Origin: Planctomycetaceae bacterium
GTDB taxonomy: Bacteria > Planctomycetota > Planctomycetia > Pirellulales > Pirellulaceae
NCBI GenBank assembly: GCA_007121535.1
Contig: SKKK01000453.1
Span: 1 to 50,407 of the forward strand
Direction of reading: 5' to 3'
Length of the DNA stretch: 50,407 nt
The notes under the pieces: generated by a model
Database searches by the model: none
Seen by the model: only the letters and a program-made list of their open reading frames with translations
What the model was told of the DNA's origin: nothing
Shown here: positions 20,671 to 23,156 of the stretch, in pieces
Position numbering within the stretch: position 1 is the stretch's first letter
Layout: the number at the start of each line of letters is the position of its first letter
Translations under genes and position numbers: made by a program

Positions 20671-20911
20671 GAGCGGCAAGGCGCTAGCCTCCGTTCTTGC
20701 CGTCGTCTTGGAAACGGTGGCTAGCGCCATTCCGCTCAGTTAATCGTCGCCGATCCTAAGGAGCCGGTGGCTAGCGCCATTCCGCTCAGTTAATCCTCGC
20801 CGATCCTAAGGAACCGGTGGCTAGCGCCATTCCGCTCAGTTAATCGTCGCCGATCCTAAGGAGCCGGTGGCTAGCGCCATTCCGCTCAGTTATTTCTTCG
20901 CCGATCCTAAG
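20671..20911. repeat. 50-bp tandem array built on the REP core
   Basis: Four direct copies with a period of exactly 50 bp start GGTGGCTAGCGCCATTCCGC at 20716, 20766, 20816 and 20866. The last one is altered at its end (TTATTTCTTCG). A single inverted arm, GAGCGGCAAGGCGCTAGCC, stands at 20671-20689. The core is the same as in the REP palindromes elsewhere in the window. The array fills the gap between the divergent helicase and oxidoreductase genes; nothing else is seen in 20483-21018. Confidence 0.85.
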
Positions 20912-22023: not shown

Positions 22024-22028
22024 GTTTG

Positions 22029-22183
22029 GCAGAAAAATGGAGAAGATGGATTGGGATTAGCAGAAAAATTGGTGGCAGAAAGATGAAGAAGATGGATTGG
22101 GATTAGCAGAAAAATTGGTGGCAGAAAGATGAAGAAGAGAAGATGTTTTGGGTTTGTCTGCCACCAGTTTTTCTGCCCCATTT
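22029..22183. repeat. upstream GCAGAAA-core repeat block of the GxxExxY gene
   Basis: Direct copies of GCAGAAA(A/G)AT start at 22029, 22060, 22075, 22106 and 22121, arranged as a 46-bp tandem unit (GCAGAAAAATTGGTGGCAGA, then AAGATGAAGAAGATGGATTG, then GGATTA). Two inverted copies follow (TCTGCCACC from 22157, then TTTTTCTGCC). The inverted copies can fold back on the direct ones just before the start codon at 22200. The same motif reappears behind the gene and at 43511. Confidence 0.85.
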
Positions 22184-22199
22184 CTTGAGGGTAATACAG

Positions 22200-22997
22200 A
22201 TGCCCATCGTTGTGCATGCCGAAATCCGCAGGCCGTCGCAGGACGAATTCGCGGCGATTTCGTACGATGTCATGCATCATCTGTTTGCGATCCACAACGA
22301 ATTTGGTCGGTTTCTACGTGAAGAGATCTACAAACGAGAATTGGCGGCGCGGCGGTCCGGTCTGCAACTGGAAGTTCCGATCGAGGTGTCTTTTGGCAGT
22401 TTCACAAAACGCTACGAAATGGACGTGCTGGCCGACCATGCGGCGGTGTTCGAATTGAAAGCCGTCGAAGCACTCGCGCCGATACACGAAGCACAGTTGC
22501 TCAATTATCTGCTGTTGGCGGAATTGCCCCATGGGAAACTGGTGAACATGCGGCCCGATGTCGTCGAACATCGGTTTGTGAACACCAGCTTGCGACTGGC
22601 CGACCGACGGCAGTTTACGGTGATCGACGACGAAGTGGATGCCATCCCAGAATTGCGTCGTATCAAGGATTTATTCCTGGAACTGATAGGTGATTGGGGC
22701 ACCGGTTTGGAATTGTCGCTGTACACCGAGGCCATGACGGAACTACTGGGAGGTGAAGAACGAGTGATCCAGGAGATCGAAATCCTGTCGGGCAGCCGCG
22801 TCACCGGCACACAAAAGGTCCATTGGGCATTGTCAGATACGCCGTTCAAGATCACTTCGTCCGACGAACAAGGCCGCCACAGATTCGCCGAACACGCACG
22901 AAGATTCCTTCAGCATACCCGTTTATCTCGTCTGCTATGGATCAACGTCACGCTGCACGAAATCCTGTTCCGGACCATTTACAAGCAGAAAAACTGA
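22200..22997 (+). CDS. GxxExxY protein, PD-(D/E)XK nuclease fold
   Basis: This is a 265-residue protein; the ATG at 22200 follows GAGG. NEFGRFLREEIYKREL is the variant GxxxxxExxY motif. KRYEMDVLADHAAVFELKAV provides the D ... ExK catalytic pattern of the PDDEXK_3 superfamily, followed by HEAQLLNYLLLAELPHGKLV. About 120 residues beyond the core (from RLADRRQFTV on) make this the long form of the family. It has no signal peptide. Family function is unknown; nuclease activity is inferred from the fold. The gene is enclosed by direct and inverted arrays of one repeat, and its last codons and stop (GCAGAAAAACTGA) are themselves a repeat copy. No partner gene is adjacent. Confidence 0.85.
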   Translation: MPIVVHAEIRRPSQDEFAAISYDVMHHLFAIHNEFGRFLREEIYKRELAARRSGLQLEVPIEVSFGSFTKRYEMDVLADHAAVFELKAVEALAPIHEAQLLNYLLLAELPHGKLVNMRPDVVEHRFVNTSLRLADRRQFTVIDDEVDAIPELRRIKDLFLELIGDWGTGLELSLYTEAMTELLGGEERVIQEIEILSGSRVTGTQKVHWALSDTPFKITSSDEQGRHRFAEHARRFLQHTRLSRLLWINVTLHEILFRTIYKQKN

Positions 22998-23135
22998 TGG
23001 CAGAAAAATAAACTGAAATTCGTTTAGATTTGGCAGAAACATTGGTGGCAGAAAAATAACAAAAAGAAGACCTTCTGAATCTTTCTGCCATCAATCTTTC
23101 TGCTACCAATTTTTCTGCTATCAATCTTCCTGCCA
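22985..23135. repeat. downstream GCAGAAA-core repeat block
   Basis: Direct copies start at 22985 (inside the GxxExxY gene end), 23000, 23032 and 23048. From about 23083 they are followed by inverted copies (TTTCTGCCATCAATC, TTTCTGCTACCAATT, TTTCTGCTATCAATC, CCTGCCATCC). Direct and inverted halves pair, so the block can form a long, imperfect hairpin just beyond the gene and before the convergent uvrD-like stop codon at 23157. Confidence 0.85.
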
Positions 23136-23156
23136 TCCTCCCCAACGATTTTCCGA

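What the first reader, a model, noticed from the sequence alone, without database searches (positions are those of the whole stretch)
22029..23135. GxxExxY nuclease-fold gene enclosed by direct and inverted arrays of one repeat
At least nine direct and six inverted copies of a GCAGAAA-core motif (typical spacing about 15 bp, in part a 46-bp tandem) lie on both sides of a long-form GxxExxY gene. In each flank direct copies come first and inverted ones follow, so each flank can form a long imperfect hairpin. The gene's final codons and stop are a repeat copy. This intimate arrangement suggests the repeat is part of the unit: a template for homing or copying, a structured RNA, or the target of the PDDEXK protein. 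GxxExxY proteins have no established function.
Basis: partly seen in the sequence, partly recalled or inferred. Interest (0 to 1): 0.8.

Follow-up and report, generated by a model that had tools for sequence, protein, structure and literature searches.

The report
Nuclease genes with matching hairpin repeats
Genes of a common bacterial family of unknown function (GxxExxY) sit between arrays of short hairpin-forming repeats whose sequence differs from gene to gene, and copies of the matching repeat are scattered over the same genomes, which suggests an unrecognised kind of small mobile DNA.

Summary
In detail: 9 direct and 6 inverted GCAGAAA-type copies enclose an intact long GxxExxY gene (22200-22997). 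The GCAGAAA sequence is local to this genus; the architecture is not. Repeats shared between the two flanks mark 15 of 20 long-form and 33 of 44 scored short-form loci, against 0 of 51 other ORFs and 2 of 56 distal controls. The repeat differs from gene to gene: 14-15-nt units at long forms, mostly 8-10 nt at short forms. Matching repeats are dispersed in genomes that carry such a gene and absent from most others tested. In one complete genome the gene unit and 12 gene-less elements share the same ends. A second dispersed family of the window's genome has a decayed GxxExxY gene inside its array. The long protein is an intact PD-(D/E)XK domain plus, most likely, a degenerate second copy. Best reading: GxxExxY is a nuclease that mobilises its cognate hairpins, a non-homologous counterpart of RAYT/REP. 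Coupling and presence/absence are shown; catalysis and movement are inferred. Nine searches of an open-access library found no paper linking GxxExxY to repeats.

The parts
22027..22181 (.). Left array: five direct copies, then an inverted pair (22152-22177); includes the 46-bp tandem; can form a hairpin
22200..22997 (+). Long-form GxxExxY gene, 265 aa, conserved MPI start; longer ORF reading from 22143
22236..22601 (+). N-terminal PD-(D/E)XK domain with E41, D75, E85-x-K87, Q99, Y103
   Evidence: invariant in 12 of 12 aligned long forms; Pfam PF13366; fold
22638..22994 (+). C-terminal domain, most likely a degenerate second GxxExxY domain without the catalytic residues
   Evidence: model; profile match to short forms; fold comparison
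22984..23137 (.). Right array: four direct copies, then inverted copies at 15-nt period; first copy contains the stop codon
43511..43536 (+). Solo direct pair of the same repeat, no gene

Best explanation
The window holds a gene-bearing copy of a small mobile unit: a GxxExxY PD-(D/E)XK nuclease between hairpin-forming arrays of its own cognate repeat. Shown: such arrays enclose GxxExxY genes and not other genes; the repeat differs from gene to gene, and matching copies are scattered in genomes that carry such a gene; units are present or absent between the same neighbours; gene-less elements of one genome have the same ends as its gene unit; some arrays hold copies of gene ends, and decayed genes lie in arrays of their own repeat type. 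Inferred: the nuclease recognises its own repeat (hairpin, cruciform or duplex sites), cuts or nicks there, and host repair copies the hairpin, with or without the gene, to other places. It would work like RAYT transposases with REP/REPIN repeats, with an unrelated enzyme. Guess: short forms act as dimers on about 10-nt units; the long form is a fused pair with one dead half that reads 15-nt units.
For: Flanks: 15 of 20 long, 33 of 44 short at score 16 or more, distal 1 of 17 and 1 of 39, shuffles at most 13; 0 of 51 other ORFs reach 14. Cognate dispersal with zero reversed-pattern controls. Same neighbours without the unit in G009, Parabacteroides distasonis and Sphingomonas paeninsulae. G408: 12 gene-less elements and the gene unit share inner arrays; 22 of 26 ends carry an outer AAGRCA box. 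Copies of gene ends in arrays of L039, L042, L075. Internally deleted unit L079. Decayed gene inside the second family's array in G000. Nuclease residues kept in 12 of 12.
Against: No activity, binding or movement was tested. Five of 20 long and 11 of 44 short loci miss the threshold; L043 and L081 show no repeat at all. Unit and protein distances are not significantly correlated (16 long forms, r 0.13, 886 of 5000 permutations as high). G009 has 11 own-type and 13 G039-type copies but no full long-form gene was found there. G028 has 14 copies of the G013 type. No base-exact empty site and no target duplication was obtained. Only 10 of 20 hairpin places in G000 lie outside any ORF of 90 aa or more in a crude ORF call.
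Confidence: 0.55

Rival explanations
1. GxxExxY is not the mobiliser. The hairpins are moved by another enzyme or spread by slippage and recombination, and the nuclease gene is a passenger or a controller that binds or trims hairpins, for example cutting extruded cruciforms.
For: Arrays expand as local tandems (L039, L041, L045, L075), which slippage could do; repeats occur in G009 without a full gene.
Against: Many different repeat sequences are each found around a GxxExxY gene; the apparent orphan family had a decayed GxxExxY gene. No second gene shared by the units was seen, but none was searched for systematically.
Confidence: 0.2
2. The unit works at RNA level: the arrays form hairpins in the transcript, and the protein cuts or binds them, as a repeat-RNA toxin-antitoxin or as an excised intervening sequence.
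For: Short forms mostly run in the direction of their neighbours (30 of 37 upstream, 30 of 39 downstream; crude ORF calls); arrays fold well (DNA parameters); the Coxiella 23S rRNA intervening sequence is a 428-nt selfish element with an ORF, excised by RNase III (PMC4990558, abstract).
Against: Gene-less copies scattered over the genome are not expected of an antitoxin RNA; no Rfam family reaches its gathering score; long forms show no clear direction bias (6 of 12, 10 of 15).
Confidence: 0.12
3. GxxExxY is a host or defence protein that uses the scattered repeats as regulatory or recognition sites.
For: A copy lies at the 3' end of a DNA methylase gene in G447 (PF01555); a PIN-domain gene takes the unit's place in G009.
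Against: Only weak defence-library hits (Cas4 E 0.0026 for the window protein); repeat type changes between related genera, unlike a conserved regulator site.
Confidence: 0.08

Closest known systems
RAYT transposases with REP/REPIN repeats
   Same: A nuclease gene between inverted copies of a palindromic repeat, cognate copies dispersed in the genome, gene 3' ends captured in arrays (PMC2817692, PMC3116915: passages)
   Different: Enzyme is PD-(D/E)XK, not an IS200/IS605-like tyrosine transposase; repeats are tandem 10- or 15-nt units in inverted arrays without a GT(A/G)G head
Transposons with MITEs
   Same: In G408 gene-less elements share both ends with the gene unit; internally deleted copies exist
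   Different: No known transposase domain in the gene; no target duplication seen
Cas4 / RecB-type PD-(D/E)XK nucleases
   Same: Best fold match of the N-terminal domain is SSO0001 (4ic1), Z 9.4, rmsd 2.1, 91 residues
   Different: Sequence match to Cas4 is weak (Pfam E 0.07; PADLOC E 0.0026)
Rpn (YhgA-like, Transposase_31) nucleases
   Same: Described as recombination-promoting nucleases of broad distribution (PMC5350276, PMC10327210: starts of abstracts in a listing)
   Different: No Transposase_31 match of the window protein among Pfam hits; no cognate repeat was mentioned in what I saw
23S rRNA intervening sequences with S23 ORF
   Same: Small selfish unit around one ORF (PMC4990558, abstract)
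   Different: Lies in rRNA and is cut by RNase III; here the units lie between protein genes

Membership tests
GxxExxY family (TIGR04256 / PF13366) | Profile match over the curated cut-off | tested here: met
   64.2 bits against 35; 67.5 against 22
GxxExxY family (TIGR04256 / PF13366) | PD-(D/E)XK residues kept | tested here: met
   E41, D75, E85, K87, Q99, Y103 invariant in 12 of 12 long forms
RAYT/REP system | Tyrosine (HUH, IS200/IS605-like) transposase | tested here: not met
   Only PDDEXK_3 over its cut-off; predicted PD-(D/E)XK fold
RAYT/REP system | REP with GT(A/G)G head | tested here: not met
   Window and relatives' units start GGC, GAC, CAC and the like and show no such head (read by eye; L042's GGTAG unit is the nearest)
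RAYT/REP system | Gene between inverted repeats, cognate copies dispersed | tested here: met
RAYT/REP system | Repeat and enzyme co-diverge | tested here: inconclusive
   16 long forms, r 0.13, 886 of 5000 permutations as high
Transposon with MITEs | Gene-less copies share ends with the gene-bearing copy | tested here: met
   One genome, G408, 13 elements
Transposon with MITEs | Target-site duplication or exact empty site | tested here: inconclusive
   Ends compared by eye only; L007 place not alignable; neighbours alone show absence
Cas4 nucleases | Cas4 profile match | tested here: not met
   13.6 bits against cut-off 22.7
Type III (repeat-RNA) toxin-antitoxin | RNA repeats that neutralise an endoribonuclease | not testable with these tools
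   Needs expression and RNA data; definition recalled

The most novel reading that the evidence does not exclude
GxxExxY genes are the autonomous copies of a new class of mobile DNA: each is a PD-(D/E)XK nuclease that, without any known transposase, recognises and disperses its own hairpin repeat, so that scattered CACAGAT-, CGCAAAG- and GGCAGAAA-type repeats of bacterial genomes are its non-autonomous offspring. The long form, one live and one dead nuclease domain, reads a 15-nt unit where the short form reads a 10-nt unit.
Probability: 0.5. Interest if true: 0.92.

Novelty: categorically new. Interest (0 to 1): 0.82.

Why it matters
GxxExxY is a label without a function, and short repeats of the CACAGAT kind had no stated origin in the papers found here. 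The coupling gives both a joint, testable explanation. If the nuclease moves its hairpins, it is a convergent counterpart of RAYT/REP built on a different enzyme. If it does not, why a nuclease and a hairpin are tied together in several phyla is still an open question that one protein and a few oligonucleotides can test.

Tried and rejected
Rejected: GCAGAAA as a general GxxExxY mark. Rejected: chance or generally repeat-rich flanks. Phage origin not supported: no relative of the window protein in viral contigs, no match of one short form in 50,697 phage records, no PHROG. Second repeat family as counter-evidence: weakened, since one of seven regions read holds a decayed GxxExxY gene in its array; the other six showed none, and not all 28 copies were read. 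Not confirmed: co-divergence of unit and protein. Not achieved: exact empty site at L007. A 45-nt test for gene-end copies found L075 only; a looser 30/18-nt test with controls found L039, L042 and L075. Coding remnants in the dispersed G000 hairpins: none among the 20 G000 loci searched. No solved structure matches the long-form profile by sequence. VIA rows under Z 8, including all rows for the C-terminal domain (best 6.6), are not counted as family evidence.

Dropped before the flank count: partial matches L046 and L057, L064, and own fragments L035 and L036 at contig ends. Four short loci were skipped for lack of flank (L051, L086, L093, L106; L106 looks like a broken long form). L040 (115 nt) and L083 (111 nt) were scored with one short flank; L079, L080 and L081 are broken or partial genes counted as long. 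L128, a further long form found later, is in no flank count. Genomes for the pattern searches were chosen by me with the gene's repeat type known; the 12 G408 elements were chosen from listed inverted pairs. Plasmid flanks included 15 nt of gene on each side.

Papers: searches (open-access PMC only; the GGCAGAAA-type strings were not searched). Passages seen: PMC8934634, PMC3733652, PMC2817692, PMC3116915; abstract and outline: PMC4990558; the rest listings.

Full report
Observation. The arrays are real and exceed chance (23 GCAGAAA against 6.6 expected, 0 of 100 shuffles). The working unit is a pair of 11-mers 15 nt apart, direct then inverted, so each flank can form a hairpin. The gene is an intact long-form GxxExxY with a conserved start at 22200.

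Is the repeat tied to GxxExxY? In the window's genome the pair occurs 34 times, 8 at this gene and 26 at 21 other places, 0 for the reversed pattern. The other GxxExxY hits of this genome show no cluster of it. So the sequence as such is not the family's mark. But relatives of the long form carry other repeats of the same build: GGTTATAGAT (L038), GACAGGAAGAT (L039), GGCAGAATGAT (L040, L041), GGTAGGAAGAT (L042), GGCAAGGGAAT (L044), GGCAAAGGAAT (L045), GGCAAAAAGAT (L075), GACAAAAAAT/GGCAAAAAAT (L077), CACAAAATnAT (L078). In L077 and L078 the gene stands between two hairpins that are 88% and 86% identical direct copies.

Statistics. I scored the best ungapped match, direct or inverted, between the 350 bp before and after each gene. 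Long forms: 15 of 20 at 16 or more, median 29. Short forms: 33 of 44 scored (48 tried), median 19. Distal segments of the same loci: 1 of 17 and 1 of 39. Shuffles: at most 13. Other ORFs of 120 aa or more in the window and seven loci of 8 to 13 kb: 0 of 51 reach 14. Many short forms carry tandem units such as CCACAGATGCACACAGATAAACACAGATG before the gene and the inverse after it. A clear period was found at 7 of 20 long forms (14-15 nt in 6; the seventh is a poly-G tract) and at 23 of 46 short forms (8-10 nt in 20, the rest 7, 18 and 20); shuffles 0 of 20 and 1 of 46. Eight plasmid-borne short forms from five phyla were read; 4 of 8 score 16 or more, among them Bacteroides finegoldii with 30-bp inverted ends.

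Cognate dispersal. Four long-form repeat types were searched in 20 chosen genomes (both strands, copies at the genes included). Own type: G000 31, G447 32, G009 11, G039 2, none in 16. G006 type: G006 65, G024 8, G016 4, G447 2, none in 16. G013 type: G013 22 (9 at one of its genes), G028 14, G447 1, none in 17. G039 type: G039 6 (4 at its gene), G000 28, G009 13, G447 3, none in 16. Seven genomes in which no long form was found (G001, G003, G007, G011, G018, G019, G053) have none of the four. Two short-form types were searched in 18 chosen genomes. CACAGAT type: present in 6 of 6 genomes whose gene has it (G408 78, G100 67, G333 57, G121 18, G441 7, G369 1, the last being the gene's own), 3 in G398, none in 11. 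ACAGGAT type: G211 10 and G180 11, each within about 13 kb around the gene, none in 16. Reversed-pattern controls were 0 in all six searches. The 28 G039-type copies in G000 looked like orphans. Five G000 and two G009 regions with this type were read; one, on G000 contig C548, holds a decayed long-form gene (E 6e-19) inside its array, the other six none. G009 is still an exception: repeats, but no full long form found.

Signs of a mobile unit. At the window's own place the sister genome G009 has the same neighbours (88-89% DNA identity) and, instead of the unit, a small ORF and a PIN-domain gene (Pfam E 8.6e-8). Parabacteroides distasonis has radA and the FAD gene 13 bp apart where B. finegoldii has the unit. 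Sphingomonas paeninsulae lacks GxxExxY between fabD and the fabG-like start where S. parapaucimobilis has it. These species are divergent, so they show presence and absence, not exact ends. In G408 (one 7.38-Mb contig) 12 gene-less elements with cores of 83-187 bp and the 456-bp gene unit share inner arrays, and 22 of 26 ends have an outer AAGRCA box 5-8 nt out. L079 is an internally deleted unit. Arrays of L042 (4) and L075 (2) hold extra copies of the gene's 3' end, those of L039 (2) of its 5' end; interior controls 0 of 170 and 1 of 170. The RAYT authors report 3' ends of rayt genes captured in four arrays (PMC2817692, passage).

Protein. G36, E41, Y44, D75, E85, K87, Q99 and Y103 are invariant in 12 of 12 long forms, so the nuclease centre is kept. 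The model (five sequences; pLDDT 92.0 for the best of five, 61-69 for the others) resembles Cas4 SSO0001 in its N-terminal part (Z 9.4, 91 residues). The C-terminal part modelled alone (pLDDT 92.6, 91.6, 83.5, two under 50) has the same order of helices and strands as the N-terminal domain. Its profile aligns over 106 columns with short-form GxxExxY (P 4.3e-5, probability 69%) and less well with its own N-terminal domain (P 4e-4, probability 35%), with the catalytic E and ExK lost. Fold matches are weak but again led by SSO0001 (Foldseek E 2.6e-3; Z 6.6). So the long form is most simply an intact domain fused to a dead one. That this explains the 15-nt units is a guess.

What does not fit. Unit and protein distances are not significantly correlated in 16 long forms. 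Five of 20 long and 11 of 44 short loci miss the threshold; L040, L041 and L084 still show a hairpin within a flank, L043 and L081 do not. No exact empty site or target duplication was obtained. Only 10 of 20 hairpin places in G000 lie outside any ORF of 90 aa or more (crude calls). Activity, binding and transposition are untested.

Comparison and novelty. It works like RAYT/REP and REPIN systems but fails their membership tests (enzyme, repeat head). The open-access library holds two papers with the word GxxExxY: one read at its passage (a passing mention), one only listed. Six short-form repeat strings gave two papers, on other subjects by their titles. Subscription papers and preprints were not covered. 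I rate it categorically new because no system that I know or found ties a PD-(D/E)XK gene to its own dispersed hairpin repeat, whichever mechanism proves right.

Noticed in passing
window 20715-20911: Four tandem copies of a 50-bp unit (95% matches) just before the oxidoreductase gene; similar DNA matches on at least nine other contigs of the genome.
   Followed up: no
L124 2235-2896 (G009): At the window's place the sister genome has a PIN-domain gene and a small upstream ORF, antitoxin-like by position only.
   Followed up: partly
L127 2006-2865 and 5826-5897 (G447): GGCAGAAA hairpins at the 3' end of a DNA methylase gene (PF01555) and of the neighbouring 539-aa ORF, whose last codons LAERLMAEK are repeat sequence; that ORF has no Pfam hit. 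Similar gene ends abut hairpins in L008, L018, L130.
   Followed up: partly
L079 5802-5904 and 6489-6591: A 103-bp, 91% direct repeat, the methylase gene's 3' end, flanks the decayed unit, as if gene end plus hairpin had been duplicated together.
   Followed up: no
L128 906-2050 (G447): Another full-length long form (49% identity) with a long tandem array of GATGACAAAAAGATT upstream, partly masked.
   Followed up: partly
L179 2606-3431 (G000 contig C548): Decayed long-form GxxExxY gene inside an array of the second dispersed repeat (GGCAAGCGAAT type) of the window's genome.
   Followed up: yes
L043 (G052): Long-form gene without flanking repeats, beside a poly-G stretch; possibly an assembly artefact.
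   Followed up: no
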